Source: Megalonaias nervosa
Taxonomy: Eukaryota; Mollusca; Bivalvia; Unionida; Unionidae
DNA: 64,000 nt
Direction: 5' to 3'
NCBI GenBank assembly: GCA_016617855.1
Contig: JAECUM010096251.1
Location: 52,490 to 116,489 of the forward strand
A program made the translations under genes and the position numbers. The number at the start of each line of letters is the position of its first letter. The stretch's first letter is position 1. The notes beneath the pieces were generated by a model. It searched no databases, had not been told where the DNA came from, and saw only the letters and a list, made by a program, of their open reading frames with translations. This document shows positions 1 through 27,346 of this stretch, in pieces.

Positions 1-1
1 C

Positions 2-1027: not shown

Positions 1028-1030
1028 GCT

Positions 1031-3588: not shown

Positions 3589-3718
3589 AAATGTCATTTT
3601 CATATACACCTTTCTGTAGACTCATAAGAGTTCTTCTTATGTAATTTTATTTTACCTCGTGTATAATTTACATCTGGTAAAAAAGAAAGCTTTATTACAT
3701 AAATCTTTCTTTTTTCTT

Positions 3719-3730
3719 TATGGGGGAAAG
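3719..3730 (+). promoter_or_regulatory. Polypurine tract
   Basis: A purine run (GGGGGAAAG) directly precedes the TGTTACG start of the LTR. This is the expected primer for plus-strand cDNA synthesis in LTR retrotransposons. Confidence 0.8.
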
Positions 3731-4679
3731 TGTTACGACCCTGTAGTTAAATTACATGTGTGTTAAAATTTAAATTCTTCTAATTCTTTGTTTCATTTTT
3801 ATTTCATTTTTACATCATTAAATGTAGTAGTTATTATTATGATGATTATGTTTGCATGGGTCTAATATTATGTTAGAAACATCGTATTTATTTAAAACGT
3901 AAACGTGACTCGTGTAAGCACGATTTTTGCATGACGGTTTTTCGTATCAAGTAAACAGTGAGAAAGAGCTATGTAAATGATTGGCTGTGACCACGTTATT
4001 ACTTGTTTACGCTTTTGTAATGTCCAGATGGATTGCGAAATCACACGTGTGCTTCATGCGTGTGTACATGTAATGACGCATTAGCTTGTTTTAAATGCTC
4101 AGTTACCTGTAAGAAATGTTTGGTCGTAGTCGTAGTCAGTCGTAGTTCACAGTCACATCATAACATCTTACAGAGTTTATAATACCTTAAGAAAGGTATT
4201 TCTGTGCTGGAAAGAGTTGCGCATTCGTACGAGGATCAACATGTGAATTGTTAGTGGTGGTAGCTGTACTTTATCTACTTTCTAAATAAGTATTTTCCCT
4301 GGAGAACAACACTACTGGCTTTGGACAAAGACATTTGATGAAATTACTTCTAAATCGGAACAAAACAATACAAATTGTGCTTTACAGTGAAAATTCTGGA
4401 CATTCTGTGTTAGCCTTCGTCTGACGTCATCATCCGCCATCTTGGAACGGAGCTGAGATTCAGACTGTGTCAATTTAGAACTGTTTATTCACAGGACTTA
4501 TGTGTTTTCACAAATTTAGAACATATTTTTTGGATCTTCTCCGTAAATCGTAAGTCTTGCTTCATATACTTACCTTTTCACCGTGTTTTCTAGGGAAATA
4601 AATTGTTTTTGTTAAAATTCACAAAGCTTGTTGTAGTCACTCTTTCTTTGTGTTACTTTGAACGAGCCGATACGTAACA
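3731..4679 (+). repeat. 3' LTR, 949 bp
   Basis: It starts with TGTTACG and ends with CGTAACA, a perfect 7-bp terminal inverted repeat with the canonical TG...CA ends. It follows the polypurine tract and contains an AATAAA-type signal near 4595. The partner 5' LTR is outside the window, so the target duplication cannot be checked. Confidence 0.85.
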
Positions 4680-4861
4680 AGACAATCAGTCGTTGACATA
4701 TATTTTCGAGCTCGCGTAAACCGAGGGGCTATTGCCAATTACAGAGCTGTCGCTGTTATACTTAGCGATAAATCGATGTTGCTTGAAGGTGTTGGTGGAC
4801 GAATGAGTTATTGATGCACCCGTAGAGAACATTTAATTAGATCGCTCATAATAGTTATAAA

Positions 4862-5413
4862 ATGTTACATCTAGTTAATGTCAGTCTGACTCCTGGTCAG
4901 ATTAAAAAGCTACAATCATCATCAAAAAATAATTGTGCGGCAAAAATATCACTGCGGCGAGAACAAATCGCGAATGGTCCGAATAAAATATCATTATCAG
5001 AACGTCAGCATAATAATTTTAGCAAGGCAAAAAAACTGAATAAAGGTATAAAACTCGATCTTTCTGCGAGTGCCATTAAGGAAATCGCCAAAACGGGTGG
5101 CATATTTCCACTTCTTGCCGCGTTACCGGCAATAATAGCCGCTGCAACCCCAGCTTTTGCAAAAGCAGCTGCATTAGGCGCTGTTGGAACCGCTGCTGGA
5201 ATGGCGTTAAAGAAAGCAACGGGTCAAGGAATTATGCAAGCAGAAAATTTAAAAACAAGATCACGGGCAAAACAACGCGGAAGACGTCTAAGAACACCAA
5301 ACGTTCCACAGCCGGGACATCTAAGATTATCAGGCCCAGCATACGGTCGGGGTCTAAGATTACCAGGGACCCCACATTCGTGGTACGGAAGCGGCCTAAG
5401 ATTACTCCAGTAA
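4862..5413 (+). CDS. pX/pVI-like minor virion protein
   Basis: 183 aa. A basic N-terminal half is followed by KTGGIFPLLAALPAI near residues 79-93 and an Ala/Gly-rich hydrophobic stretch, then a basic tail with repeated G-x-GLRL/GHLRL units. The GG before a hydrophobic segment is typical of adenovirus-like precursor proteins that the neighbouring adenain-type protease could cut. It is the first gene of the + strand capsid cluster and lies only 12 bp before the protease. Function is inferred from composition and position; there is no enzymatic motif. Confidence 0.6.
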   Translation: MLHLVNVSLTPGQIKKLQSSSKNNCAAKISLRREQIANGPNKISLSERQHNNFSKAKKLNKGIKLDLSASAIKEIAKTGGIFPLLAALPAIIAAATPAFAKAAALGAVGTAAGMALKKATGQGIMQAENLKTRSRAKQRGRRLRTPNVPQPGHLRLSGPAYGRGLRLPGTPHSWYGSGLRLLQ

Positions 5414-5424
5414 CTTCGACATCG

Positions 5425-5845
5425 ATGATTTTCCCTATGTCCAATTTTTATTTACTTAATGCCGCTGAGCAACTGAATATAAAAAACTTTGGAGGAGTTT
5501 TTATGCGTGATCAATTACCTCCTCTTGCAATGCAACAAGAAACTGGTATTATTAATCTCTGGTTCAGGCACTCATTGGGTGGCGTATGCAATTGATCCAC
5601 GTGGAATTATTTATTTTGATTCGAATCGGTTGGCACTACCAAAGGAATTTTTAAAATATATAAATACTGCTCAGATGCGTTCTAAAATCTGGTATTCAAC
5701 ATTACCAACACAAAAATTAACTGATCCACCGATATGCGGTCAAGAAGTACTTAATGTACTTGATGCTGTATCAAAATCAACAACACCACCTCATAAAGTC
5801 GTGCATGAATATACCACGTTGTCACACTTAAACAGATATCAGTAA
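5425..5845 (+). pseudogene. PRO: Adenain-like cysteine protease, frameshifted
   Basis: The first frame has the N-terminal block (NFGGVFMRDQLPP near 5487-5525). The second frame has the catalytic His in SGTHWVAY near 5567-5590, the acidic residue in YFDS near 5612, and the Cys in PPICGQEV near 5730. The break is a single frameshift between about 5555 and 5570. The family matures capsid proteins inside the particle. The gene lies between the pX-like and fibre-like genes, as expected for a capsid cluster. Confidence 0.85.
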
Positions 5846-5850
5846 ATATA

Positions 5851-6927
5851 ATGGTAGATATTTATGGAAGATCTTCTCGCAAAGCTCAGCAGGTGGTCGA
5901 TTTATCTAAATACGCAACTCTTGATCAGCTCAGAAATTAAATCGATGATTTATTAAATATCACAAGTGTGGATCAAAATGAAGTCGTTGTTTTTCAGGAT
6001 AAACAAGGACGATTAAAAACGAGTAATATACAACTGTTAGATGTTCTTATACGAATTCCCACCGCGATTATTAATAATATCGTTACTTTTTCTGATCAGG
6101 GTAAAATACAAGATTCCGGTAAGTCAGTTAACGATTTTATCAAGCGAGCTGGTAATTCATTCACGGGTCACATTATGATGAACCGAAATAAAATTATAGA
6201 CCTTGGGAACCCAACCGTAGATACAGATGCAGCAACAAAAAAATACGTCGATGATCAAGAATCTAAGTACGTATTAGTCAGTGGTGGTATAATGCGTGCA
6301 TTTCTCAACATGAATAATAATGGTATTAATAATCTTAGAACACCAGAATCAGATTTCGACGCTGTAACGAAGAAATATGTAGACGATAGCAACATTAAGA
6401 TCGCTAGCGATCAAGTAACAGCAATAACAACAATCAATAATGAAATGACTACACTCAATACTAATTTTACTAATCACGTACAAACTTTCTTAAATTTTCG
6501 TAGAAACATAAACAGATCTATTAATGATTTTTTTGGAACTCGACCAACTGTTGATATCAAACTCGTCGATATTAACATGAAACTCAACGATATTGTCAGT
6601 GGAATACCTATTATTGTTCAAAAAACTAATCTGATTAAAATTCCACACGGACAAATTAAAAATATCGTGTACACAGTAGCATCAGGATCAACAACATGGA
6701 CACCGCAAAATAAAACTCTCGAACACAGCGCAGACGTAACAGGGTTATACAGGCTATCCCTGTACGGTTCGGAAATTACTGCGGCCACTTCATCATCACC
6801 GAATGTATATCATAATCCATTGCTGGTGATGCTAACCAAGGACATCAAGGAAACATTCACGTTGACATCAACGGAAATGCCCCCGAGACGTTACTGGTGG
6901 TGCCTGGAATTCGTAGCTGAAGCTTAA
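5851..6927 (+). pseudogene. Fibre-like protein with tail-fibre repeats, one in-frame stop
   Basis: The natural ATG is at 5851, 5 bp after the protease stop; TAA at 5938-5940 is in frame and truncates it. The remaining frame runs to 6927. Two copies of a motif typical of phage and viral fibres are visible: NPTVDTDAATKKYVDD near 6210-6255 and TPESDFDAVTKKYVDD near 6340-6387, each preceded by a glycine-asparagine rich strand. The C-terminal part could be a receptor-binding or trimerisation head. Role as a virion fibre is inferred. Confidence 0.65.
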
Positions 6928-6948
6928 TTAAATGACGTTGTTATTATA

Positions 6949-7434
6949 ATGGATCGAGATTCACTTATCGATGTTCAAGGTCACAGATACGCTCAAGTAT
7001 GTGAGTGCCAAACCAAACTAAAAGATATCATCGACGATTATACAATAAAAGTAAAAAAATATCGCAGACGAATGGTTGTTATTGATATAACTGTTTACTC
7101 AGTTTCCACTGTTATTGCTGGAACCGGATTATTATTATCAACAATAACAATGACAGCACCTGCAGTTGTAACAATTGTCGTTTCAACGGGAACAGCATGC
7201 ACAGGCATTCTTAATATTATCGCCAAGAAGATATCTACGTGTACGAATGATAAATTAAGCGAGTACATACCAAAACTACACGCAGCAACAACATCTTACT
7301 CTAAACTATCATCGTATCTTTCTGCGTATCTCAGCGATGGTAAAATATCTGATGAGGAGTTCGCAACGATAATGAAAACCTACGATGAAGCATTCATAAT
7401 CGCTAGCGATTTTGGTGATAAAGTAACTAACTGA
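6949..7434 (+). CDS. Two-TM hydrophobic protein
   Basis: 161 aa. A polar N-terminus with a short basic helix is followed by a long hydrophobic block at residues about 43-88 (enough for two membrane passes joined by a short turn), then a helical C-terminus. It starts 21 bp after the fibre-like gene and ends 43 bp before the penton-like gene, so it belongs to the capsid cluster. I do not recognise the family; a membrane-active virion protein is possible. The frame is intact. Confidence 0.6.
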   Translation: MDRDSLIDVQGHRYAQVCECQTKLKDIIDDYTIKVKKYRRRMVVIDITVYSVSTVIAGTGLLLSTITMTAPAVVTIVVSTGTACTGILNIIAKKISTCTNDKLSEYIPKLHAATTSYSKLSSYLSAYLSDGKISDEEFATIMKTYDEAFIIASDFGDKVTN

Positions 7435-7477
7435 AAGTTGAATTCATGTTCTATTAAATAACGGAGTATTTTAAATA

Positions 7478-8932
7478 ATGTCATTGGAACTATTGCAGAA
7501 GATCGTCACTAATGCAACGCCGTCAAAAACTACTATGATATCATTAAGTTCGACCAATCCCGAATTTAGCGTTAACTTCCCCACGGCAATTTCAGCGAGT
7601 GAAATAGTGCTGGCGCAACTGCGAGTTTATCATAGTTGGCCAAATATCAGATCAGCGTCGTTTGGTGGACTACCACCTAATAATTCACTGGTATTCGCGA
7701 ATAAAAACAAACCAGATGGAACTCCCGATTGGCAGGTTGTTGGAATCCCAACGGGCAGTTATCAAATAGAACAGATTAATGATGAGTTTCAACGCAGAAT
7801 TAAATCTATCACGGGGAAAGAATCTAAAATAGCGATCACTGTTTACGAAACAACATTTTCAGCGGCGATTGAAATAAACTCCATTGATTATGTTGTAGAT
7901 ATTTATCAAAGTTCCATCAGATCTGTGTTAGGATGGCCTGATGTTCCTCCTGTTTATAATGGAATTCTAGAACAAGCGCGGGAAGAATTTAAGACAAGCG
8001 AAAAAAAATTCATTAAAGATCCAGAATATCAAAATAAAAATCAATGGATTTACATGAGATTTAAAATTGATCCAAGCGACAATGAATATTACTTTACCGA
8101 TTTTGACGGTAAAAGGATCCCTAAGATAAATAGATCAGCACTTATTACCTACTTCATAGACGACAGGCCGTATAGAGTTAATGTTGATGAAGAATTTTGT
8201 AAAGGATTTTTAAATAATCTTAAACCCGAATATGATAAAACATTTAATGATTTAAGAATTTTACTTATTTCATTATCACAACATTACAACGATAACGTAA
8301 AGCAGCAAATAATTGAAACAATAAAACATTTAAATGGGGTCTTATTTGATTTATATATCGCTAATCGAAGTAACTCTGCGACTAAACTCGATGGAAATCC
8401 TTACTCAAATCCAAAATGTAAGCAATTATTTCTTGATCATTACAAAATAACAGAAGAACAATTAAAAACATGTATTATACCAGATTTAAATAACGCTGAA
8501 ATGAAGAAAACAATTGACGATCTTATAGAAGAATATTTTCCAAAAATACTTGAATCATGGAGAAAAATAATCTTGTCATCGGTCATACTTAAACACAACA
8601 ACGATCCATACGGTGGCGGCCGTCATATCTCGCCACAAATTGTTAATATAACATCAACGATCGCAGTCAATGTAGTATGCGATGTAATCGATGACAGCTA
8701 TCAAGTAGACCTTAAGAAAAGTAGCGCTGCCCAGCAAGGCTACATATTAGATACATTTAGCCCTCAAGGGTCTCCCTGGTATTTAATTGTATCTGAACCG
8801 ATTAACCCCGTTTATCTACGTGTACATAATCCGTTATTATCAAGAATACATTTCAAACTTACAGATCAGCAAGGACGTATTTTGGATTTACAGAATGAAA
8901 CTTTAAGTATAAATCTGTATGTGAGATCATAG
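7478..8932 (+). CDS. Penton-like minor capsid protein with large insertion
   Basis: 484 aa. The N-terminal ~165 residues (LAQLRVYHSWPNI, VGIPTGSYQIEQIN, SVLGWP) and C-terminal ~105 residues (SPQIVNITS, SEPINPVYLRV, FKLTDQQGRILDL) match the pattern of Polinton/adintovirus penton, a single jelly roll. Between them lie about 200 charged, helical residues not expected in this fold. The insertion could be a surface domain. Last gene of the capsid cluster; frame intact. It is too penton-like at both ends to be the major capsid protein. Confidence 0.75.
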   Translation: MSLELLQKIVTNATPSKTTMISLSSTNPEFSVNFPTAISASEIVLAQLRVYHSWPNIRSASFGGLPPNNSLVFANKNKPDGTPDWQVVGIPTGSYQIEQINDEFQRRIKSITGKESKIAITVYETTFSAAIEINSIDYVVDIYQSSIRSVLGWPDVPPVYNGILEQAREEFKTSEKKFIKDPEYQNKNQWIYMRFKIDPSDNEYYFTDFDGKRIPKINRSALITYFIDDRPYRVNVDEEFCKGFLNNLKPEYDKTFNDLRILLISLSQHYNDNVKQQIIETIKHLNGVLFDLYIANRSNSATKLDGNPYSNPKCKQLFLDHYKITEEQLKTCIIPDLNNAEMKKTIDDLIEEYFPKILESWRKIILSSVILKHNNDPYGGGRHISPQIVNITSTIAVNVVCDVIDDSYQVDLKKSSAAQQGYILDTFSPQGSPWYLIVSEPINPVYLRVHNPLLSRIHFKLTDQQGRILDLQNETLSINLYVRS

Positions 8933-8968
8933 AGCGTTATATGACAAAACAAACAAAAAAAATTATGT

Positions 8969-9043
8969 TTTATCCTTGATTGAGGGAAGTCCTCATTTCA
9001 TAAATAAAATAATAATTGTGTACTTCCCTCAATCAAGGATAAA
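8969..9043. repeat. Perfect 22-bp stem hairpin between convergent genes
   Basis: The arms at 8969-8990 and 9022-9043 are perfectly complementary, with a 31-nt AT-rich loop containing AATAAA on the + strand. It sits between the end of the penton-like gene (+) and the end of the coiled-coil gene (-). It may serve as a shared 3'-end structure for both transcripts, or be a foldback element; arm length also fits a microRNA precursor. Confidence 0.6.
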
Positions 9044-9215
9044 TATTAAGGTGTTTATAAACAAACATAAATGAATACCGTTGCAGCGCATTTTATAACG
9101 AACCTTTAGATTAAAAAAAAATATCCGAATCTAACTCGGATCTGAATAAATTTTTTTTTTACTAGGTAAATCGTAATTATCAGAATAAAATATTATAAGT
9201 AAATAACCTGTATAC

Positions 9216-9605
9216 TTACCAGGGATTTTGTATCACATTAACTCCACCTTCACTTTCATTTTCACAATGCTCTCTTAACTGTCTTATACGAAGGTTCACG
9301 ATCTTTTTCTGTTCGTATTCATGAGATAATTCTAACTTAATTTTGTCAATAGCGTTTGAGAGAGGTACAAACAGCTTTACTTGATTATCTGTAACTGCTG
9401 CCAGCGACTGTAACATTGCCTGCTGGATAAACTTCATGAATTTATAATCAGATGGTAGTGTGTACCGATTCTCTAATTCTCGATGTTCTAACGATTCAAA
9501 GTCAGACAGAATTTTTTCAGGATTAAGATTATCAGATATATTTACACGGTTATATTGTAATATTTTAATCGCATTGATAATCACATTAATATTTTCGGAA
9601 TTCAT
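9216..9605 (-). CDS. Small coiled-coil protein
   Basis: 129 aa, opening with ATG and intact. It is mostly helical with a predicted coiled coil near residues 85-115 (KLELSHEYEQKKIVNLRIRQ) and an acidic/asparagine-rich end. It converges on the capsid cluster. I do not recognise the family. Asn/Ile-rich AT-driven composition matches its neighbours. Confidence 0.5.
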   Translation of the reverse strand: MNSENINVIINAIKILQYNRVNISDNLNPEKILSDFESLEHRELENRYTLPSDYKFMKFIQQAMLQSLAAVTDNQVKLFVPLSNAIDKIKLELSHEYEQKKIVNLRIRQLREHCENESEGGVNVIQNPW

Positions 9606-9639
9606 TATATTATTAGTGTTTGTTTAATATAAAAATAAT

Positions 9640-10135
9640 AGTCCCTAAGGACTGTTTTTATGATTATATACACATGATTATATACACATGATTATGATTA
9701 TATCTTAATTACGGACAGCACATTAACCCCATGTGATCCCCTAGGTTGCCAAATAACATCCTAGCAGGATCAGAGGTCACATATAAACTTATTTCTAAGA
9801 ATTTAACTAACTTATCCTAGGGCAACACATAATCTTAATTACAGTAGCGTATTTACAGCAATCATATTTACAGCACATTAACCCCGTGTGAAACCCCTAG
9901 GTTGTCATCCTAGTATGCTCAGAGGTTTATATAAACTTATCTTATAGACACACCCCCAGCGAATTCCTAATCGAAACGAAATACTAGAAATTCAGAGGGC
10001 TGTCTCATTATGATTTTATGTAGCCTAAATCAAGTATATTTACAGTAACGTACTTACAGTAATGTATTTATATATAATGACGACACAGTACATGTAGACT
10101 TAACTAACTTATCCTAGGACAATACAACGGGCCTT
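9640..10135. repeat. Noncoding region with imperfect direct repeats
   Basis: No gene is seen. Two copies of an ~85-bp unit (CACATTAACCCC...CCTAGG...) lie near 9710-9800 and 9866-9945. TTAACTAACTTATCCTAGG occurs near 9803 and again near 10099. A short ACATGATTATAT repeat lies at 9670-9700. Confidence 0.55.
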
Positions 10136-10138
10136 TCT

Positions 10139-10257
10139 CTACGTTTCAATAGAAATTTTTGCACACCTCCCCCATCAAAATGACCCAAGGAGTGCAAAAT
10201 TGCACCCACCAAGCGATATGGTGGGAGAGTGTACAAATTTTTTCTATTGAAATGTAG
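10139..10257. mobile_element. Short foldback element (MITE-like)
   Basis: The ends are inverted copies of CTAC(G/A)TTTCAATAGAAA (10139-10155 and 10241-10257), with further pairing inside. No coding capacity. It resembles a miniature inverted-repeat element inserted in element 1. Confidence 0.5.
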
Positions 10258-10267
10258 AAGGGCTGGC

Positions 10268-10400
10268 TATGCCCCCAATAAATAACAAATTTTGGCATAG
10301 CATAGCCTTCGCCGGCAGTCTGCCAGTCACAAGATTCGAACCACGGACTTTGAGCATGAGAGTTCAATGCGTTAGCAATCGGCCACCGGACTTCATATGT
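10268..10400 (-). repeat. tRNA-derived SINE fragment
   Basis: Read on the minus strand, an A-box-like GTGGCCGATTGCTAACGC and a B-box-like GTGGTTCGAATC are spaced as in a tRNA gene. No intact cloverleaf was found, so this is a tRNA-derived repeat, not a working tRNA. Confidence 0.5.
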
Positions 10401-10445
10401 ATATATATTAAAAATATTAGTATTAAGTTAAGCGTAATGTACTTA

Positions 10446-10555
10446 GCGTAACAGAATAAAATCAGTGGATTTCCTAATAAAATCAGAATTTATTATGCAT
10501 TTCTTAATAAAATCAGTGGATTTCTTAATAAAATCAGAATTTATTGTAAAACGTG
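10446..10555. repeat. Tandem repeat, ~50-bp unit, two copies
   Basis: Two near-identical units built on AATAAAATCAGTGGATTTC and TAATAAAATCAGAATTTATT. No gene is visible in the surrounding 10,400-10,830 stretch. Confidence 0.6.
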
Positions 10556-10831
10556 AATTTATTCAGTTTCCAAATGCTTGAAACTGCATTACACACAGCT
10601 AAAAGTCTGTATGAATCAGACGTTGCCAAGGATACTAAAATAATCGATAAGCTATACAAACACGTAATGCCAGCTCATTTCTAAAAATAACCTCATACAA
10701 TTCACTGCTTAGATCGCAGCGATTTCATAAGAACGTAAAAAATATAAATATTATTGAGATTTTATAGAATAATGTGCATAATGGCATCATTATTTATACA
10801 ATGATAAAATTATTGAAAACTCTGAATTGTT

Positions 10832-11044
10832 GTAGGGTAAAAACCCCAGCGATTGTCTAATTGATTTTGATGATTTCTTGATAAATTTGACAATAACTCA
10901 CTAAAAACTGATAAAAAGCAAGAAATTTTGATTAAAAATCTCTTCATTTTAGCAAAAAAAATAGTGATATTTTAGCCAAGGATTTCTATAAAAATCGAAA
11001 AATCATCAAAATCAATTAGACAATCGCTGAGGTTTTTACCCTAC
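10832..11044. mobile_element. Foldback element with ~45-bp inverted ends
   Basis: The left arm starts GTAGGGTAAAAACC and the right arm ends GGTTTTTACCCTAC; the arms pair over about 45 bp with one or two mismatches. The interior of about 120 bp is noncoding and AT-rich. This is a MITE-like insertion. Downstream, 11,045-11,480 holds only short AT-rich repeats (ACGAGATTTTCGAA twice). Confidence 0.65.
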
Positions 11045-11489
11045 CAGCGCTACAAAATCTAGCAGAATTTCATTGATTTTTGGTCATTGTTCATACAAAA
11101 AACGAGATTTTCGAACAAAAAAACAACAAAAAACGAGATTTTCGAATAAAATCAACAAAAAGAATATAAAAAAAAACCATTTATAAAGGCGATGTTTATT
11201 TGCAATACGTTTGAGATGCATGACTAAATTCATTGAAATGTTTTTACAGTCGAAGTTTGGACAATCAGAGAATGTGATATATGTTTTGTGTACTATTGAA
11301 AGATATCACTTATAGGGTTGGACTCTTTCAGCACGATAAGGTGCAATCATTAGTATTAAGTACGACAACTACGATATTTACTATTATGCTTGACGGAGTT
11401 GTCTCGCTTCATTATCTGATACTATAAGAATTGCATCGATGAAAAAAACACCTGCATGAAACTATCAAAGCAAAATGAGAAAATACTGT

Positions 11490-12005
11490 TCATGAAGAAG
11501 GTTCTGGTAGATAGGTGAACCTAATTCGTTGTCCAAACCCCATTGAAAAAGCATATTTGTATGTTTCATCGGCCACACGTTGTACCGATTGTGGATATAT
11601 ACCAAAATATTTGGCAGCTAAATTCATAGAATTAAAATTTCTCTCTTCACTAGTCTCTGCATTTACGGCTTTAATAGCTCTCTTTTTAAATATTTTACAC
11701 TTTCCTGTATTTCCACGTGCAGAATTTTTATTCTGCTTAATAGCTTGTAGATTATCAAGCGAGTTATTTTTGGGATTTCCATCAATGTGATCTATTACGA
11801 GTCCATCTTTAATGATTCCAAAATAACACTCGAACACGAATCTATGTGAGAAATAATTTTTATTTCCGTTGGCGTTAAATCTAAGATAACCAAATTTATC
11901 AACATTACCGACTGGTTTCTTTAATCTGCAGTTCTTAATTACACCATCACGAGATGCTTCATAATTAGTGATTATTGGATGCGCCACAAATTCGTTTTGC
12001 TTCAC
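11490..12005 (-). CDS. Free-standing HNH endonuclease
   Basis: About 171 aa. The central HNH motif shows HRFVFECYFG...VIDHIDGNPKNNSLDNL, matching phage and homing-type HNH nucleases; the C-terminal part (YPQSVQRVAD) looks like a small helix-turn-helix DNA-binding unit. No ATG is in frame ahead of the domain: a TGA directly precedes the GTG at the start, so the start codon may be lost or shifted. It could be a selfish nuclease carried by element 1, or serve its replication. Confidence 0.75.
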   Translation of the reverse strand: MKQNEFVAHPIITNYEASRDGVIKNCRLKKPVGNVDKFGYLRFNANGNKNYFSHRFVFECYFGIIKDGLVIDHIDGNPKNNSLDNLQAIKQNKNSARGNTGKCKIFKKRAIKAVNAETSEERNFNSMNLAAKYFGIYPQSVQRVADETYKYAFSMGFGQRIRFTYLPEPSS

Positions 12006-12099
12006 TCATATAATATTATTTGCTTAAATCATTATTTTGAAAATCTAGCTAGATAATTTTCTTCGGATTTTATAGGAGATTCAGAAGATGTGGTTTTTT

Positions 12100-12327
12100 T
12101 TATCGTAATATCGTTTCAGCTCTCTGTATTTTTTTGCCACCGCATTGCACACACAATTGAGTTCTTCCTCTGACTCCAACACCACACCGCATACACGGTT
12201 TTGGTCCGAAACTGCCTTGTCTAACACATTGCATATGGTAGCCGCAGAATTCGTTTACGGATGCTTTGTTACAAGGAGAAGTATATCCGATCATAAGCCA
12301 ATGACATCGATTTTTTGTTTGAATCAT
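12100..12327 (-). CDS. Small cysteine-rich zinc-binding protein
   Basis: 75 aa from ATG 12327. CNKA...FCGYHMQC is followed by CMRCGVG...LCVQCGGK, that is paired CxxC knuckles resembling a small zinc ribbon. It lies divergently, about 50 bp from the polymerase/helicase gene, so the two probably share a promoter region. Family not recognised; nucleic-acid binding is likely from the motif type. Confidence 0.55.
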   Translation of the reverse strand: MIQTKNRCHWLMIGYTSPCNKASVNEFCGYHMQCVRQGSFGPKPCMRCGVGVRGRTQLCVQCGGKKIQRAETILR

Positions 12328-12379
12328 ATACAAAAAGATTAAATTTTAATTAAATGCATATTTTGTCCTAATTATAATA

Positions 12380-15300
12380 ATGCAGGAATTATCCGCGATT
12401 GAACCTTCCGCAGCTAGATTTGACCTCGACAGACTGCATAAATTTAGTTTTTCTATGCAAGATCTAGCTTTAACGAATAAGGATATAACAAAACGTATCC
12501 GTGAGGCCAAAAAGGAATTTTGCGACGATGGTGCGGCTCATGTGTGGTCGACGTTCAGAATTGGAAATAATGTTAATATGATGAATGACAAACGAGGAAA
12601 AATGATTATTGACTACCTTGTTCAGAAATATTTTATTTTAATAAAATTTATTGTAAAGACAGACGATGACACCTGGATTATTCGTGACAAAAGTGACTCT
12701 GTCCATAGGTCAGGAGATAATATTGTTATTAGTAAAAATTCCAGACCAGGAATACTTACTGGTATTGATAAACCGTATTACGAGCGATCATACCCTGTAA
12801 CTGCGGTTGAATACGCGGTATACCCCTTAAATAATAAACCTGACCTCAATGGTCTCAAGCCCATGAAATTATCAACAGCATCAACGAGGATAAATTGCGT
12901 AGCTGAACGGTTTACAGAACACTTCACAAACGCGATACGCGGAAACGGTTTAACGGATTTACGACGTAAAAAAATAAACACGTTGGCAGAAACAGTTAAA
13001 GATACCGGAGCGTCTATCAGCGACGTTGCTGAGCTGGGAAAGAAATTGAAATTCCCAATAACGGTGAAGACGTTAACGGAGAGAGATTTTATACAAATCG
13101 AAATATAAATCAAGGGGAGCTTCTAGAGATATTATTGATCATAACGCACATGCATGGACGTCTGCGGTAACAATATTTCCACGAGATAGAACGGTTAAAT
13201 TTTATAATGGTCATGTATTTGATGCTATCAGAAATATCAGTAAAATTGACCCTGTATCTGTTTGGCTGTTTCAGAGTTCCGAATATGATCATCATGATTA
13301 GTTTGTACGATCTAATGGTGATATTTATCGTACAGAATCTCTCCATGGGGAAATGAAAGATCTTGCACAACGCCTCGAATACACACCCGATAAAGTTGAA
13401 CAATTACTTAATAATTGTTTTACCGTTCCATCAGTTGCTGCTCACTACGCTCAGGAGAAAAATTTATGGAAACCGACACGATTAAAATTTCTTGAAGATG
13501 TCAAAAAAAGTTGTATCGAATACGGACATGGCGGGTTGTGGAATACTAAATACGATTGTAATGACGTTATCTCAGTTGATATGGTAGCTTGTTATCCAGG
13601 AAGTTTTCTTGGATACGGAGAGTGTTCTGAATACTATAAGATATTTGGACATCCCACACACGAGATGACCAGAGTGCCTATAAACGGACCCCTTCCCCAA
13701 GGACCTGATGATTTAACCGGATTCGCCTGTATAGAGTCGTTCGAGTTTTACGAGGGTCTCCATATGATTGTTTACGCGTGGTTTGGAAAACATTTTTCAG
13801 AGCGATGTTGGGCTAAATAGTACTATTACGATATATGCTCAACGAAAGAATTTTAATGTCGTTACGCGTAAGTGAAGCGATTATATCATGTCACGCGCAG
13901 TATCAAGTCTGGTTGCCAGAACCGCATGTATTTAATGAAGGGGATTTTTCCGATCCCGATATTTTTTGCGAGTACAGAAAAACACGTAATGAGAAATTCG
14001 CAAAAGATCTCGGTAGAAAAATAATCGGTAAATTTACGCAAGGAGGATCATATGATCATAAACGAGCGTGCACAAGATTAATCATGGACGATGCTGAACT
14101 TGATTTGATAATCGCCGAAACAAATGAGAAAAACACGTTTATAAGTCGCAGTAATGCTTATTTATCAGACGGAACAAAATTAGGTGCAATTGTGAGCTGT
14201 TCTGATGGCGAGTCACCTCAGTTTACTCATTTAAGATCTTCGATGCTAGCGTATGTTCCGATAAATCTATTATCGATGATAAACAGATTTCCTTCGTTCG
14301 CGGTCAGAGTCGCGACAGATTCATTTTATATAAACAAAAAACACGCGGATTTGTTGAAACTTAACTATCATGCATCACGGGGCGAATGGAGAATAAAACA
14401 CGAGGATATAATCAATTATTCTGAATCCGCCGATGTTGAAATTATAAGGACATATTACAAGAATGATCAGCTATCAACGATGTCATCGGCGCCATCTGTA
14501 TATGATCATGTAGCTAAACATAAGACCGTTTATCTTAATGGGTGTGGTGGTTCAGGTAAAACAACACGCGCGATTAAATTATTTAGTAATTGTTCTGATA
14601 TGATAGTTTTGACACCGACGCATAAACTCGCCAGGGAAATAAAAGAACGAGGAGTAAAATCGTGTACATATCATAGTTTTTTTAGATGGTGCGGAGACGC
14701 ATGGACTCCATCGCGGATGGGTGAGAAACACATTCCTAAAATTATTATCTGGGACGAGATATGCACGGTGCCGCTAGAGGTATTAAAAATATTTCTTGAT
14801 TGGCTGTTATTAAAAAATACTGCTGTGGTGATGTGTGGCGATCATGGTCAACCACCACCCATAGTTGGTCAATCTCCACATGAGTGGCTGAAAACATTTG
14901 TAGATTATTACGAAGAAATACACGATGACCATAGAGCTATTGATGGATCACTAAAAGAGTTTAAAAAGTTAATAAGATTACAGCCAGATAAAATACAATG
15001 TGAGATAATGCGTAAAGTAATTCCAGAAACTTCCATGAATGATTTTTGGGCCTCATGGAGACCTTCTGATTTGATAGATGCGAGCAGAAAAAAATAGTTC
15101 GCGATACACCTCAACAACAATTATTTACGTTACATAAAGAAAAATTTTCAAATCTACCTGTACCTTTGTGTTATCACCCAGCAGATACTCGACGACAGAA
15201 TGTTGATGTTGAGATTCCTGGTGCCTTGGTTCCACCAAGGATACAAAAACTTGTGTTAAATGATATCGTTTTAGTTGCTGTTGATGTTGTTGAGAGCGCG

Positions 15301-15784
15301 TTAATCATGGATAAATCGCCGTGGACGTTAGGATACGCTATAACAATTCACTCGTCACAGGGATTAACTATTACCGATACATGCATTTTGATTGTCGATG
15401 ATCGTATTGAGTGGTCAAATTTAGTTTATCTAGCAGTGTGTAGAGTTAGAAGAATATCCCAACTGCGCCGGGTTATCATGGATTGCGTAATAACCGAAGA
15501 AATTCCCGACAATAATGTCAATATAAAAACTAGCGAGCTATAAACAATGTGATAAAAACAATAATCGCGATTTTGATATCGATGCTGAATTTATTATAAC
15601 ACTAAAGTCACGACAGAATAATCATTGTGCAAGTTGTAACTAAAATATCCTGTAGCAGTATTTAAGTAATGATTCTAGACAATTTACCGTCGATAGAATT
15701 AATAGTGATGTTGGTCATACACGCGAAAATGTAATGCTGACCTGTCTTGAATGTAATCGACGTCGAGGCGCTGCAAGTTTATAA
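12380..15784 (+). pseudogene. Polymerase B-like palm, SF1 helicase and HNH domain in one gene
   Basis: The N-terminal and palm region has motif A (VDMVACYPGSF, about 13575-13607), a motif-B-like GKFTQGG near 14025 and motif C (VATDSFYI near 14311). A superfamily 1 helicase follows: Walker A GCGGSGKTT near 14542, LTPTHKLA, WDEICTV near 14749, CGDHGQPPP near 14833, ITIHSSQGLT near 15341 and YLAVCRVRR near 15430. At the end is an HNH-type nuclease (CASC near 15630, FTVDRIN, TCLECNRRRG near 15740-15775). Breaks: frameshift near 13108, TAG 13299-13301, frameshifts near 13815, in an A7 run at about 15090 and near 15535, and two stops in the HNH part. The order suggests a single replication protein, now dead. 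Confidence 0.75.
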
Positions 15785-16750
15785 AAGTGAACGCGGTGGT
15801 AATTGCGTATCTGTAGGAATTATTTGTAATTGTTCGCGTACAAATCCACGCTGAAGAGCAGTTGAATCTAATCTGTAGATTGCGGGTCTACCTGTGGACC
15901 TTACCACGCTAGAAATTGTGTGTGTGGTCACACTCCAGATAGGATCAGTTGCTCTGTTTCTACCTCCTTCAAGTTCACCAGGTTCATATAAATATCTTAC
16001 CGTAACATCGCCTAGTACTGGTTGATGGGAATAATTACGTTGTCGGCGGGTTATATTTTTTTTTGTGATCGCATCAGAAGGTTTCATAGAAATTGCACGA
16101 GTTACTTCGTCGTTTAACGCAGCTATCACACTCGGTAACCTCGCAACCCATTCACGAGATCTCTCCATGGTTTCGGTAGATATTTCCCTCACGTATTGGT
16201 ATCCAAATAACCGCTCAGCAAGTGTTCGATTAAATCGTTCAACGATTGCCTGATCACGATGAAGTTTTGTGTGTCCTCGTCTGATTTTAACGTTATGTCG
16301 CTTCATCAACGATGATACTGCACCAAGAAATTCTTTGCCAGAATCAACCTGTAGCAGTTGTGGCCATCGTAGGGGTCCTCGTTGATAAATGCGTTCAAGC
16401 GCAGATGCAACTTCAGTCGCTGTTTTAGTTGATAATGGTTCTGCTTCTTTATACCTACTCGCAACATCAACGACGGTTAACGCGTATTTGTATGTGTATT
16501 GACGTCTACCGATTTTAATGGTATGGTGTGGTATAAACAAAATATCTGCTTGATGAACTTCATTAGAGGTATTAACATCAAAATACGCATACTGAATTTT
16601 TTTAGGTGGACGTAGATAGATTTGCCATATTGCCTGTCGTGCTAACCACGCTGCAGCGACATTACGTGAGACTTTTGCTGCTTCAGCAAGTTTACTAATC
16701 GCTGCTTTACCTCTCCAGAATCCTCTCGGGGAATAATAAACAGATTCCAT
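15779..16750 (-). CDS. INT: DDE (rve-type) integrase
   Basis: 323 aa from ATG 16750. The catalytic triad is D69 (HQADILF), D136 (LQVDSGKEF) and E171 (IVERFNRTL), with exact D-35-E spacing, preceded by a short helical N-terminal domain and followed by a DNA-binding C-terminal part. The frame is intact. It overlaps the end of the polymerase/helicase gene tail to tail by 6 bp. It would insert the element's linear DNA into the host genome. No chromodomain is visible, unlike element 2. Confidence 0.9.
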   Translation of the reverse strand: MESVYYSPRGFWRGKAAISKLAEAAKVSRNVAAAWLARQAIWQIYLRPPKKIQYAYFDVNTSNEVHQADILFIPHHTIKIGRRQYTYKYALTVVDVASRYKEAEPLSTKTATEVASALERIYQRGPLRWPQLLQVDSGKEFLGAVSSLMKRHNVKIRRGHTKLHRDQAIVERFNRTLAERLFGYQYVREISTETMERSREWVARLPSVIAALNDEVTRAISMKPSDAITKKNITRRQRNYSHQPVLGDVTVRYLYEPGELEGGRNRATDPIWSVTTHTISSVVRSTGRPAIYRLDSTALQRGFVREQLQIIPTDTQLPPRSLL

Positions 16751-16766
16751 TATAATAATCAATTGA

Positions 16767-17258
16767 TTAATTACCAGCCCCTAACATTATTTTTCCTTTC
16801 ATACCAGCTTTTATCAGAAAACTAGCGAGTTTTTCTCTGCAAGATGTATCTTTAATATTATTTAACGCATGAATCAACATCATATCTGCAAGGTGCCGTT
16901 GTTGTAAATCCTTACTTTTATACGCGACATCGTGAATGTGACACGCTTGATCAATCTTATTTATTGGATATTCTCCAGGTTTTGGTTGATCTCGGTTATC
17001 GAGTCGGATATCGAGACGAGTTCCAGGACCACAATAGTTATACCCGGGCAAATGTTTTTCACCGGGGTACTTTGTCCTGGTAATTAACCTAACGAAGCGG
17101 TGATATCTCCACCTGTCTTTAATGAAATAAATTTATATTTTTTTTGTACCACATTTCACACACTTGCCTGTAAGTGCGCGCCTTTCATTTTTTGTTATTA
17201 TTGTCTTTAATTCACTTGTGGGCGTACGCGCTTTACATCGAACACAATATAGATCAAT
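16767..17258 (-). pseudogene. Zinc ribbon plus parvovirus-type phospholipase A2, in-frame stop
   Basis: The N-terminal zinc ribbon (LYCVRCKARTP and GKCVKCGTKK, 17145-17258; DUF5679-like) is followed by TAA at 17133-17135, then the same frame continues. KYPGEKHLPGYNYCGPGT gives the calcium loop, and CHIHDVAY (near 16930) the catalytic His-Asp of parvovirus VP1-type PLA2. In parvoviruses this activity breaks endosomal membranes during entry; here it is inferred to be a virion membrane-escape enzyme. The start codon position has no ATG (ATT at 17256-17258). The gene lies directly upstream of the integrase on the same strand. Confidence 0.75.
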
Positions 17259-17269
17259 AATATTATTAT

Positions 17270-17938
17270 ATGGATATAATTGATTTCTCAGCGACACGAA
17301 AACAAGAGCCAGTCAAACATCACCCAGCGCTACCAAATTCTATCAGAGCAATTATACTTGGCCCATCTGGGTCTGGTAAAACGCAATTATTACTTAATCT
17401 GATAATGCGATGGCTGAAGTGGGATAAGTTGTATTTAGTAGCGCCATCTGTAGATGATCAACGATGTTACGAAGTATTTAAAGATTTTAATGAAAACGCA
17501 ACGTCACTGAATGAAGACGGTAATGAGGTTGTTGATTTTATTACCGATATCGATGAATCTCCATCTGTAGATGATCTTGATGGATGTATCAATAATCTCG
17601 TAGTATACGATGATGCAATGCTGGATAAACAATCCAATCCAGCTCGGATATTTTCGCGAGGCCGTCATAAAAATACTGACGTGATCTATGTTACTCAGCG
17701 ATATACACAAATTCCTAAAGTAATTAGAGATAACTGCAACATTTTGATCGTGTTTAACGGCGTAGATAATTACACGCTGCAGAACATTCATTATACTTGG
17801 TGTTCAGGGGACATGGACATGATTAAATTTAGAAACTTCTTTTCAAAAGCACAAGCTGTTCCGTTCGGATTTATAACAATAAATTTACATGACCCCAGAT
17901 CTAGATATCGTATAGGTCTGGGTAAAATCTTTGGTTAA
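17270..17938 (+). CDS. ATP: FtsK/A32-type DNA-packaging ATPase
   Basis: 222 aa. Walker A GPSGSGKT at residues 31-38, Walker B VVYDD at 111-115, then the HKNTDVIYVTQR sensor-like block typical of Polinton and poxvirus A32-like packaging ATPases. The frame is intact. The gene diverges from the zinc-ribbon/PLA2 gene with hardly any gap, so the promoters overlap. It is the right-most gene of element 1. Confidence 0.9.
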   Translation: MDIIDFSATRKQEPVKHHPALPNSIRAIILGPSGSGKTQLLLNLIMRWLKWDKLYLVAPSVDDQRCYEVFKDFNENATSLNEDGNEVVDFITDIDESPSVDDLDGCINNLVVYDDAMLDKQSNPARIFSRGRHKNTDVIYVTQRYTQIPKVIRDNCNILIVFNGVDNYTLQNIHYTWCSGDMDMIKFRNFFSKAQAVPFGFITINLHDPRSRYRIGLGKIFG

Positions 17939-17944
17939 ATGTTG

Positions 17945-18229
17945 AGCAGCAGAGGGGGTGAACAGGCCACTTTTCTCGTCACGGGTGTAAAAATGGTGGC
18001 AGAAAAAAAAAGTCAGAGTGTAGAGCAACAGTATTGAGCTAAAAATGATGGTATCACGTTGAGTTAGAGTGGCGGTCGTGTAACGAGGCTGAGCTAACAT
18101 AATGGATACAATGATCGGTTAGAGGGCGCGGTTTAAAGAACTGACCTGTGCTTCTCAGCCCCGCTAGGAACCTTCCATTTTATAAATAAAGGACGCCAGA
18201 AAAGTGGTCTGTTCACCCCCTCTGCTGCT
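17945..18229. mobile_element. 285-bp unit with 36-bp inverted ends
   Basis: The left end (AGCAGCAGAGGGGGTGAACA...) is repeated inverted at the right end (...TGTTCACCCCCTCTGCTGCT) with about two mismatches over 36 bp. The interior is noncoding. It lies just after the ATPase gene and could be a MITE or a remnant of the right terminus of element 1. Confidence 0.6.
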
Positions 18230-18660
18230 AGCACTGAAAAATATATATTTTTATTAAATTAATGTTCAATGCAATAAAAAGAAAATACTTATTTTGGACT
18301 GGTGAAGAATGTGCATGTCCTTATGCAAAATGGTGTTATTGTTCTCTGCATGCAATGAGCTACGGCAGTTCCTCAGTAATCATTAATAAATATAAAATAA
18401 TAACAGGCCTAGGACTGTACACTGTACAATAACGCTCTAGGCTAAATATGTTTATCCATCAAAGAGGACCTATTGGGTTCTTTCCGTAAGCCATATATTG
18501 ATCTAATCTCTTCCCTGGCTGTCAATGCCATAGAAGTCTGAGATGTCAACGGTATAGTACTGAACTGGAAGCTTTTGAAATATGTATTATTAGTACATAT
18601 TCAGTTTAGGTGAAACCGTTCTTGTGAAACTCACTGGAGGATGTTGCTATAAATATTCAG

Positions 18661-18662
<2 letters not shown>

Positions 18663-18737
<75 letters not shown>
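18663..18737. repeat. (TA)n microsatellite
   Basis: Uninterrupted TA dinucleotide run. Confidence 0.95.
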
Positions 18738-18739
<2 letters not shown>

Positions 18740-19397
18740 CCAACAAGTAAGTCTCCGCTTTTTTTTTTGCTCAGACCGGAGACCAACGCCGTCGGGCAAT
18801 AGTCCATACTGAAGTTTTACGCTGTGTTAACATTCTTTTAGTTCTGACGTATCGGACGCTCGTTAGTAATTAATAAATTTATTTCGAATGACCTTGGTAT
18901 GGGGAAACTAAAATCCCTTTTCTTTTGACCTATGGCGTCAAATCCTTCAGAACACTCACAGTTTAGTACTAATCCCTGTCAGAACAGAACACCTATGTAC
19001 ACTTCTATTATTGACCTTATTTTTAAATTGCTGACGCATGCGTCGAAAACAGCATCACCCCAAGGCAAGAATAACTGCTGGAAACCTTCTAGCGAGGAGT
19101 ATATCACACGGAACTGACTAATGCTTGGGATGGAACTGAGGTTAGGTCTGGCCGTCACGACAGAATTTTGAGACAGACAGAGAGAAGTGTCAGAAATTCG
19201 AGATCTGGAGAACGATAAATAAATTTTAACAAATCAAAACTGTAATGCTATTAATAACAATAATAATAACTCATAGTATGTATGTATATTTGTATATATG
19301 TGTGTAGTATTATTATTATTAAATGTTAGCATATCTTTACTGCTCATTACAGTTTTGAATTTCTTTTGTAAATTTATTTATATATATATATGTACTA

Positions 19398-19574
19398 TGG
19401 GGAAAATGCAACTATACGTGAGAAAGCTTGCCAGTAGCACCTCGTGGGTCGGTGGTTTTTCCCGGGGTTTTCCATGGTTCTTCCTCCACCATTAATACTG
19501 GCCGCCATGTATAGCCTATCTTGTGCTGAAAAATGGCGTTAAACCCTACAACAACAACAACAACAACAACAACT
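19398..19574 (+). repeat. SINE copy with (CAA)n tail, 5' truncated
   Basis: Shares the body ...GGCCGCCATGTATAG... and GGCGTTAAACCCTACAACAA with copies at 20.03 and 32.78 kb (reverse orientation there) and ends in a CAA repeat. Confidence 0.7.
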
Positions 19575-20025
19575 GATCTACGATCTTGTTTTGATCACTA
19601 TGATCCATAATTTGACTAAATAAAATAAAGTTATTGAACATTCAGTTTGTATTTTTATATACAAATATAAAATGTTTAATGAAATATATGCATGCCACAA
19701 GTTACCATAGTAGAATTGACAGTATCAGCATTCACAACATCGTTTGTGGGTGTACCTGTTGGCGCCATCTTGAATACACTGTGGTCATGTGATATGAACT
19801 CGATGTAAGGGAAATATCCTACCGCTTATAAATATTTTCCCGAAAAAAATTGCTTACCTTTCTTTTCGTCAACATTCAAACAGCATCATATTGTTTAACA
19901 ACAACAACAGCAAACGAGCAAACAACGTAATCCGTCCCCAATTCGAAGAGAAAGAAATCAAACAAATTCATTGCATTATGAGTATGTATTTATACTTATT
20001 TTTCCGGGGGGTGGGGTGAGGGGAG

Positions 20026-20232
20026 AGGAGTTTAACGCCATTTCTCAGCGCTAAAAGGGCTATACATGGTGGCCGGTATTATTGGTGGCGGAAAAAACCA
20101 CGGTATGAACCACCGGAAGCTACTGGCAGACTTCTCACAGAATCATGTTAGTCGAGCCCGAGACTTGAACCTACGCTTATAGCAGTGATTGGTAAAGGCG
20201 AGCGATTTAGACCACTCAGCTACCAGTGGTTC
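20026..20232 (-). repeat. tRNA-derived SINE, full-length-like copy
   Basis: On the minus strand it begins with a tRNA-like head (A-box GGTAGCTGAGTGGTCTAA, B-box GGTTCAAGTCTC), followed by the body shared with the copies at 19.4 and 32.8 kb. Confidence 0.75.
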
Positions 20233-20555
20233 CATACCCATGTATGTCTAAATATAATGTAACAGAAAGCTGATTCACATTAGTAACAAACACAACGGTC
20301 CTCGTTTACTAGAGATGAAACGTGTTGATTATAAACTAACCAATGTAATGAATTTTATATAGGTAATGAGAAAACTTTATATTTGCTGTCGAGGAGTGAT
20401 AGATTGGGATAGGTTTTGCGTCTTCATTGTTACATCTTCATTAATTAAAAAATTTACTAATTCGTTAATTATTTAAAAACTAATATAACATACCTATTGT
20501 CCACTCATGAATATTTTATATGCCCCACCTACGAATCCCATTCCCCCGAAGCTGT

Positions 20556-20640
20556 GATTACTAAATGGTTGGATTACCGGACTCGACATTGAAAGGGCGC
20601 GAGTTCGAATCTAACCAATGGATGAGCCGGAGTCAGGTAC
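20556..20640 (+). repeat. tRNA-like repeat segment
   Basis: TACTAAATGGTTGGATTACC and GCGAGTTCGAATCTAACC are spaced like pol III A and B boxes. No intact tRNA fold; probably another SINE head. Confidence 0.4.
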
Positions 20641-22941
20641 ATCCTTTTACAAGTTACTTTACAATAGATAGAAATCACTGATCCATACCTTAATCTTGGT
20701 GACACAAAGTAGATTTCGCACCATCGTCAGAGTGCCATTTCTCCCTCCGCGTGCAAGGATGTGTAGGTGTATTGAATAGTGATATAAAACGTGCGTATTG
20801 TATCTGCCAACTAAGTAAACTACCAACACGTATAAATCAATTGGATCGAAACTACTTTTTTTGCCACAAAGGACAAGGTAATTTCAAACATTTTCCTACA
20901 TTACAAAATATGAATATTCATTGTCACAATATGCCTATACCATACAGAGAGCAAACTCGGACTTTACGACTCTTTTCCTGAATTTGTTTCATCCTATTGG
21001 AATTAAGTGTCACGGTGTACCTATAGCCTGCAATAAACAACTCTAGTCATAATCGCTATTATGTACAGGTTTGGATATTGTAAGCAACGCAGTTTACATG
21101 ATTACATAAAGACTTTGAAGTTATAATCTTCATCACAGGTTTGTAGATTCTAAAGACTGCAGTTAACGTCTGTCCAGCGGATTTCCGGTGTTTGTCTACA
21201 TGATTGGGTAGTCTGCTTCGTTAAACTCTGTATACCGGCAAGGAGAATAGCACATCATATGGTCTATAATGGATATGAGAGTTTAGATGAGCAATAAAAG
21301 ACATTTGCTGAATTGTCTGTTTTCAAGTACAATTTTGTAATGTATTCTTACCGTGGTCATTACTGGACTGAAATGTATCGTTAGTACTATTGTTACAAGC
21401 CAGGGGTCTTTGCTTGACCGAGCGGTGTCAAACCCTGGCGCGATTCCCGCTAGAAGTCATAAGTTTACCCCAAATTTCCAAAGACTTCTATACAACATCA
21501 TTTGTAAATTAGAAAGCCCGATGTGCCCATTTTATACATGAATTTTACTCTAATCAATGCAAGACCACAGATCTACCAACTTGTCGAACATCTATCAACC
21601 GCACATCTGCATAGTTTCTCTTCATCCACTTTCCGTACCGTCAGCACTTCACGCCGTAGAAACACTACAACTATCCCCTAACACAGGGAACTATTTTAAC
21701 AACGCCACATTACGCCAGTCAATCTATGGTTTCAAGGAACATTACGCCAGTACAACTGCATCACATTTGCCACCATGGCGACATAAACGGTATCTGCTGA
21801 GTTCCTTCTTGTTTATTCCATTGTGTAATTTACCGATTTCCTACCGTAAATACTGCCACTGCAGTCACAACACCAAGGTACACCACTAGATTTTATTAGG
21901 GACTACATTATTCCAGGGGACAGTCATGCTGTGTGGGTCTGAATTCACTACTAATTGACCATGGCATCATGGAAACTCACTAACACTTTCTCTCCGCGAC
22001 GTTTGCTCCTAGTAACTGGCGAATTATTTCGGGCTACGGGATATTTCCATTGTACCGAATTCCAATAATCAAACAAGTAATCACACAAATCTGAGAATTC
22101 CTTAAACGGGGCGCTATAACCAAATGCGCATCTCCAAAATGTATTACAGTATCATAATGAGGGTTTAGATTTCGGGTAGTAAGTTAAGTCAACGTCTTGT
22201 ATACCGCATTACTTTATGATTTTATATCTCGTCGTCCCACAAAAGTTTATGTAGTATAGCTACATTTTAGTTAGCAAAAATAGTTTTAAAGCTGGCTTAG
22301 CAAACTATTGTCTAGCGTAAAGCATGTAGATGTTATTATTTTTTAAAACAAATATACAATTATTTGGTTTTTGAAAATTCATAGCGAGACCGTGAAAACG
22401 CAGGTGCAGAAAAATCCTTTGTTGTGTATGAGGTGTCGTTGCTGTCGCCGTTTATATTCTAAAGGGAAGACACTGTAATGAAAGAACCCATGGACAGTAA
22501 ATTTCATTTCGTATAAATTAATTATCTTTCCTATAAAGTTTATGTTTCATTTTGTAGCATCATCTAGCATATTAGTTTTTGGGTCACGTGATTCTGCCTG
22601 TTGGGTATATATACGTGACAACTCTGTCTGCAACGGTTGTGTGTTATGAAGCGGTATTGTGTGAATACGTCCCCTTGCAAGTGAAGCAGTAAAACCACCC
22701 CACCGGATCAAGCACATTTCGTCGTAGATCGCCGAGCAGGAAAGGGCCAGGCCGGGAAATCTAAAAGGAGTAGGGACTAGGCCTTTCGATGACCAGAATA
22801 CAGGCGCCACAAAGCTCGTTCAAGAAGAGCAAAATCTTGGAATCTTGCAACAATATTTTAACTCAAGATCTATCTACTCTCATCATTTCGCCCTGTTTGT
22901 GCCTCTATCGGTCATGAGCGAGTAACGACTCATGACCACGA

Positions 22942-23165
22942 CCTAGCCGACGACCCAGTCGGCGACCCAGTCAGCGACCCAGTTGGCGACCCAGAAGGAC
23001 GACTCACTCGACAACTCAGTGACTCAGTCAAGATCAAGTCAGCAACCCAGTCGGCGACTCAGCCGAGACCCAGGCAGCGACCCAGTCGACGACTCAGCGA
23101 CTCAGTCGGCGACCCAGTCAGCGACCCAGTCAAAAACTTAGCGACCCAGAAGTACTAGCTAGAAG
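22942..23165. repeat. Minisatellite of ~12-bp unit
   Basis: Many variants of CGACCCAGTCAG in tandem, GC-richer than its surroundings. Confidence 0.85.
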
Positions 23166-23331
23166 AACGACCCAGTCAACGACAGGAAGCCAGGAATACG
23201 ACAGTATCCCGCTGGGGTGGAGATCTGAAGCACCCTGGAGTGCCAGTCCTCAGACAGATACGACGGGGAATCACTCCAAATACGAAGAATTATACTAAAG
23301 AATCCGAGAGAGCGAGACTCGGGTTAGTGTA

Positions 23332-23335
<4 letters not shown>

Positions 23336-23381
<46 letters not shown>
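23336..23381. repeat. (GA)n microsatellite
   Basis: Uninterrupted GA run. Confidence 0.95.
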
Positions 23382-23383
<2 letters not shown>

Positions 23384-23729
23384 ACCCGCTGCAACTCTTT
23401 ACCAACACAATGGATATTATTTGCCCGTTTGAACGATATTTGCGCAGAAAATATCTGATAGCTTAATTGATTCTAAACTTTGCTCGCGTAAATGAGTTTA
23501 ATAAGCAAAATCTTCTGGCAGTCAGGCCAAGATTTTATTATGGATTGTGACTATACTAGATATGTGAAGATTCATTTTCTGTACAACTAAAAATTCTATA
23601 GCAGAAATAGGATTGTTGTTCACCGATATACTGTGTAAAATATTCTCCCGATACTATTTTGATATAATAATTTAATATATTGATTGTGACAGACATTGCG
23701 TGCTAATAGAATATTTAAAAATTGCCGTC

Positions 23730-23836
<107 letters not shown>

Positions 23837-27276: not shown

Positions 27277-27278
<2 letters not shown>

Positions 27279-27344
<66 letters not shown>
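27279..27344. repeat. (TA)n microsatellite in intron 3
   Basis: Uninterrupted TA run. Confidence 0.95.

Positions 27345-27346
<2 letters not shown>

What the first reader, a model, noticed from the sequence alone, without database searches (positions are those of the whole stretch)
12380..15784. Polymerase B-like palm, SF1 helicase and HNH nuclease in one gene of a Polinton-like element
Seen: palm-type motifs (DMVACYP, VATDSFYI), then all main SF1 helicase motifs (GCGGSGKTT, WDEICTV, CGDHGQPPP, HSSQGLT), then an HNH motif ending CLECNRRRG. They lie on one strand in one order, joined without spacers once local breaks are allowed. Ordinary Polintons encode PolB alone and have no helicase. The nearest known analogy is the polymerase-helicase fusion of some virophages and Polinton-like viruses, but that pairs other families. 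I recall similar helicase ORFs from arbuscular mycorrhizal fungi and Hydra, which would imply a wide-ranging element family.
Basis: partly seen in the sequence, partly recalled or inferred. Interest (0 to 1): 0.87.

Follow-up and report, generated by a model that had tools for sequence, protein, structure and literature searches.

The report
Polymerase-helicase-nuclease fusion in mussel virus relic
In DNA that is likely from a freshwater mussel, a decayed virus-like element carries a broken copying gene whose relatives, including sea slug and mycorrhizal fungal ones, join a predicted DNA polymerase, a predicted helicase and a predicted HNH nuclease in one protein, a layout already described in polinton-like viruses.

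The parts
12380..12880 (+). N-terminal region of the fusion gene (possible terminal-protein position; function untested)
   Evidence: Matches long relatives collinearly, e.g. P0163 3-251 on 12380-13120, 49%; no known fold identified.
12881..13151 (+). vOTU-like cysteine protease region; conserved Cys codon 12896-12898 and His codon 13149-13151; a frame break lies between them
13152..14480 (+). Predicted protein-primed PolB palm: motif A DMVACYP 13578-13598, motif C VATDS 14309-14323; broken by an in-frame stop near 13300 and by a stop and frame change near 13815
14481..15526 (+). SF1 (RecD/Pif1/Dda-type) helicase: Walker A 14540-14566, Walker B 14750-14758, motif III 14834-14860, motif V 15349-15369; frame change and stop near 15090
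15527..15781 (+). HNH nuclease domain, with stops in the window copy (CASCN ... CLECNRRRG)
   Evidence: P0163 1090-1173 on 15527-15778, 68%; Cys pairs and His in 33-34 of 35 relatives; Pfam HNH only weak (12 of 34 members, best E 0.023).
15782..16780 (-). RVE integrase, open frame of 333 codons, same element
   Evidence: Pfam rve 1.5e-8; BLAST to element B integrase ORF E 9e-20, for a 14-protein database.
16770..17132 (-). Phospholipase A2-like domain protein (parvovirus VP1 type)
   Evidence: PF08398 4.5e-14; four sequences named capsid protein (parvovirus type, from recall) as the only PDB matches, E 0.08.
17261..17938 (+). Genome-packaging ATPase
   Evidence: Pox_A32 3.4e-12; element B ATPase piece E 6e-6, for a 14-protein database.
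7475..8932 (+). 485-codon ORF, possible capsid/penton protein (inferred)
   Evidence: 12 relatives, the nearest named in Potamilus streckersoni (73%) and Sinanodonta woodiana (43% and 40%); no Pfam family at its cut-off.
5483..5845 (+). Adenain-type protease piece
   Evidence: Similar to element B protease ORF, E 0.003 for a 14-protein database; the family name and its SGTHWV and CGQ motifs are from recall.

Best explanation
The stretch 12380-15784 is a decayed copy of one fused gene whose long relatives encode, in a single chain, a predicted protein-primed family B DNA polymerase, a predicted SF1 helicase and a predicted HNH nuclease. It most likely served as the replicase of an integrating polinton-like virus: the N-terminal part would supply or carry the terminal-protein primer (inferred), a vOTU-like protease domain would cut it loose (predicted), the palm would extend the primed strand, and the helicase, of the RecD/Pif1/Dda type, would unwind the duplex ahead in place of the exonuclease-bearing PolB of ordinary polintons. 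The HNH domain would make a cut that this replication cycle needs, or would be an old homing nuclease kept in the gene (untested). The family is most likely the pPolB-S1H ('Tlr1-like helicase') kind, in a branch that reaches molluscs, a coral and arbuscular mycorrhizal fungi.
Confidence: 0.83

Rival explanations
1. An independent fusion: a polinton pPolB of animals or fungi lost its exonuclease and joined an SF1 helicase separately from Tlr1/PLV/transpoviron proteins.
For: PMC12721341 reports an SF1-pPolB fusion in reverse order and calls it independent (passages), so fusions arise more than once; no sequence-level link to Tlr1 could be tested here; the aligned range with phi29 starts at phi29 residue 54, inside its exonuclease part (the part's limits from recall).
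Against: Same domain order as the published TP-vOTU-palm-S1H-nuclease, same motif C change, and a full-length though loosely superposed structural match.
Confidence: 0.25
2. The palm is a dead remnant and the protein works only as helicase-nuclease (a helper of host polymerases).
For: First Asp of motif C is Ala in 34 of 35 relatives.
Against: Motif A Asp 33 of 35 (two gaps) and motif C second Asp 35 of 35 stay conserved; PMC11071308 lists active polymerases without the first Asp.
Confidence: 0.15
3. The element belongs to a protist or fungus in the sample, not to the mollusc.
Against: Closest named relatives are in freshwater mussels: replicase in Sinanodonta, 485-codon ORF in Potamilus and Sinanodonta.
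Confidence: 0.1
4. The HNH is a passing homing endonuclease, not part of the replicase's work.
For: PMC11071308 suggests that C-terminal GIY-YIG/HNH domains came by intein invasions; another HNH gene lies nearby (11493-12005).
Against: HNH Cys and His kept in 33-34 of 35 long relatives, animal and fungal ones among them, more steady than a passing invader would be; but the relatives were chosen by length, which may favour those with the domain.
Confidence: 0.4

Closest known systems
pPolB-S1H fusion proteins ('Tlr1-like helicases') of polinton-like viruses, the Tlr1 element and transpovirons (PMC11071308, passages and section 10 seen)
   Same: pPolB palm followed by superfamily 1 helicase, vOTU-like region before the palm, HNH or GIY-YIG at the C-terminus, loss of the first Asp of motif C, RVE integrase in the case of Tlr1
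   Different: Not compared by sequence, as none of those proteins was at hand; found in mollusc, coral and Glomeromycota sequences; one nuclease type (HNH) in the long members; possible exonuclease-like remnant upstream of the palm
OmPLV Helicase SF1-pPolB of Oxyrrhis marina (PMC12721341, passages seen)
   Same: Same two enzyme families fused in a polinton-like element
   Different: There the helicase is N-terminal and a full exonuclease is kept
Adintovirus/Polinton PolB, as in element B of this window (pieces in 47611-50313, -)
   Same: Same kind of element: integrase, packaging ATPase and protease ORFs are similar
   Different: Three of the four element B polymerase pieces match PF03175, one of them below its cut-off; two long fusion relatives have no BLAST match to these pieces at E up to 10

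Membership tests
pPolB-S1H (Tlr1-like helicases) | Palm domain of the protein-primed PolB type | tested here: met
pPolB-S1H (Tlr1-like helicases) | SF1 helicase C-terminal to the palm in the same chain | tested here: met
pPolB-S1H (Tlr1-like helicases) | vOTU domain proximal to the palm with catalytic Cys and His | tested here: inconclusive
pPolB-S1H (Tlr1-like helicases) | No exonuclease domain | tested here: inconclusive
   The aligned range with phi29 starts at phi29 residue 54; only four positions that are acidic in P0116 within 290-425 are acidic in at least 28 of 35; no exonuclease motif set recognised.
pPolB-S1H (Tlr1-like helicases) | C-terminal GIY-YIG or HNH (in some members) | tested here: met
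   HNH Cys/His in 33-34 of 35.
pPolB-S1H (Tlr1-like helicases) | Nests with Tlr1, TvV-S1, transpoviron proteins in a tree | not tested
   Their sequences were not obtained.
Polinton / adintovirus (element A) | RVE integrase and packaging ATPase | tested here: met
Polinton / adintovirus (element A) | Terminal inverted repeats | tested here: inconclusive
   None found between 1-13000 and 15000-34000; the left end may lie outside the window or be overwritten.
[quoted passage not shown]
   No candidate recognised; the 485-codon ORF matched no Pfam family at its cut-off and was not folded.

The most novel reading that the evidence does not exclude
Animals and arbuscular mycorrhizal fungi carry their own deep branch of viruses whose whole copying machine is one protein: terminal-protein priming, self-cleaving protease, polymerase, helicase and a fixed HNH nuclease that finishes or releases the DNA ends. 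Elements A and B of this window would then show the replicase of a polinton-type virus being swapped as a cassette against a conserved integrase, packaging and protease backbone.
Probability: 0.35. Interest if true: 0.72.

Novelty: new variant of a known kind. Interest (0 to 1): 0.55.

Why it matters
In the papers seen here, polymerase-helicase fusions of the Tlr1 kind are described from a ciliate element, from polinton-like viruses and from parasites of giant viruses. A branch in animal and mycorrhizal fungal sequences widens the hosts of that replication system, gives many long single-chain proteins for biochemistry, and lets the published idea that helicase gain and exonuclease loss go together be tested. 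Two elements side by side with related integrases but different replicases point to modular exchange.

Tried and rejected
IMG/VR scans with the replicase piece, the ATPase, the family alignment, the helicase alignment, the integrase, the element B polymerase and the 485-codon ORF alignment gave no confirmed relative. One GTDB locus, L001, 3152 bases in a MAG named Diapherotrites, matched; I read it as a binning artefact (inference). In the phage collection 15 records match the helicase piece; the ten listed do so at 25-32% identity and are annotated as helicase or exonuclease, one not at all. Pfam and profile comparison did not find the polymerase; structure did. Chains absent from the listed structure rows are not taken as evidence. 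The site named 'III_Q' is a Gly of motif III and is counted only as a motif III position. Paper searches: the H6WBE3 accession found nothing, seen as listings of titles and abstract starts, show no report of this branch in molluscs or mycorrhizal fungi. [quoted passage not shown] Krupovic, Yutin and Koonin 2016 and Starrett et al. 2021 are not held and were not read.

Full report
What is there. Searches show the quoted motifs on the + strand at 12380-15784 in the order palm motif A, motif C, helicase motifs I, II, III, V and the HNH motif. The reading is broken: pieces at 12350-13108, 13077-13301 and 13302-13820, 13817-15097, 15070-15543, and an HNH piece from about 15527 with stops. This is a dead copy.

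One gene or several. One search (query: the 13817-15094 piece; by the tool's length rule, candidates of about 234-745 aa) gave 97 relatives. One search (query: an Elysia crispata protein, P0032) gave 147, of which 120 were listed. The 35 of at least 1000 aa all come from that list. All 35 match the window stretch in collinear order; a reversed copy and 20 shuffles of three-base blocks (17 with any hit) gave at most 26.9 bits against 554 for the real sequence. Of the 35, 25 keep the majority residue at all 15 key positions: vOTU Cys and His, motif A Asp, motif C Asp, Walker A Lys, Walker B Asp and Glu, one position each of motifs III, V and VI, four HNH Cys and the HNH His. Shorter relatives with the polymerase part or the helicase part alone also occur; whether they are fragments or separate genes was not tested.

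Setting. Next to the gene are an RVE integrase, a PLA2-like protein and a packaging ATPase. On the left lie a protease piece, a fibre-like ORF and a 485-codon ORF whose nearest named relatives are in the freshwater mussels Potamilus (73%) and Sinanodonta (43% and 40%). A second element, B, at about 33.8-54.2 kb has inverted repeats of 93% identity over 314 columns and a PolB in pieces, three of four matching PF03175, one of them below its cut-off. Its integrase (E 9e-20), ATPase (E 6e-6) and protease (E 0.003) ORFs are similar to those of element A, E-values for a database of 14 proteins without composition adjustment; two long fusion relatives have no match to its polymerase pieces at E up to 10. 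That is what replacement of the replicase on a common backbone would leave. No inverted repeats were found for A.

Spread. Names include Elysia, Sinanodonta and Potamilus, the coral Desmophyllum (557 aa, N-terminal and first palm part only), and the fungi Rhizophagus, Diversispora, Gigaspora, Racocetra, Cetraspora, Acaulospora, Paraglomus and Ambispora. Entries named after Thiodiazotropha, a lucinid clam symbiont, are probably host DNA (inference). In a quick tree of 74 rows, with 20 of the 24 Glomeromycota proteins listed, the fungal rows form one side of a branch with support 100, and the window piece groups with P0163 and Sinanodonta (100); several rows have long branches or odd composition, so finer placement is unsure.

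Known or new. The layout is that of pPolB-S1H proteins in PMC11071308 (passages and section 10 seen). PMC12721341 (passages seen) adds a fusion in the reverse order. PMC3671162 and PMC4642659 (passages seen) treat the helicase of Tlr1 and transpovirons. The listings show no report of such fusions in molluscs or mycorrhizal fungi, but only titles and abstract starts were seen for most papers, and the 2016 paper on the fusion is not held. PMC7805220 (passages) mentions polinton-like genes with a helicase in the fungus Allomyces and a Polinton in Rhizophagus, so fungal hosts as such are not new. I file the finding as a new variant of a known kind.

How it likely works. Inferred from the families: priming by a protein at the genome end, release by the vOTU-like domain, synthesis by the palm, and unwinding by an SF1 helicase on the displaced strand. 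PMC11071308 proposes that exonuclease and helicase compensate for each other; here the place of the exonuclease holds a folded region without a recognisable set of exonuclease acids, which may be a remnant. The HNH is nearly constant in the long members, which speaks for a lasting role, though a long-settled homing nuclease is not excluded.

Noticed in passing
33795-54239: A second polinton/adintovirus-like element (B) on the - strand with inverted repeats (93% over 314 columns), PolB in pieces, integrase, major capsid-like, penton-like and protease-like ORFs (these three names from recall) and a BIR (inhibitor of apoptosis) gene at 46957-47607 (PF00653, E 4.1e-23).
   Followed up: partly
16770-17132 (-): PLA2-like domain of the parvovirus capsid type (PF08398, E 4.5e-14) encoded next to the integrase of element A.
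   Followed up: partly
11493-12005 (-): Separate HNH_3 endonuclease gene, closest to phage HNH families (PHROG 59, E 2.6e-25), beside the fusion gene.
   Followed up: no
5941-6927 (+): Fibre-like ORF with repeated ATKKYVDD-type segments that recall phage tail fibres (recall only).
   Followed up: no
10832-11044 and 8969-9043: Two self-inverted (hairpin-like) repeats, alignments of 227 and 75 columns, inside element A.
   Followed up: no
1028-3588: Gypsy-like retroelement pieces (named from recall of their sequence) at the left side, which may have overwritten the left end of element A.
   Followed up: no
L001: A 3152-base contig in a MAG named Diapherotrites encodes a relative of the fusion protein; probably eukaryotic DNA binned by mistake.
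   Followed up: no
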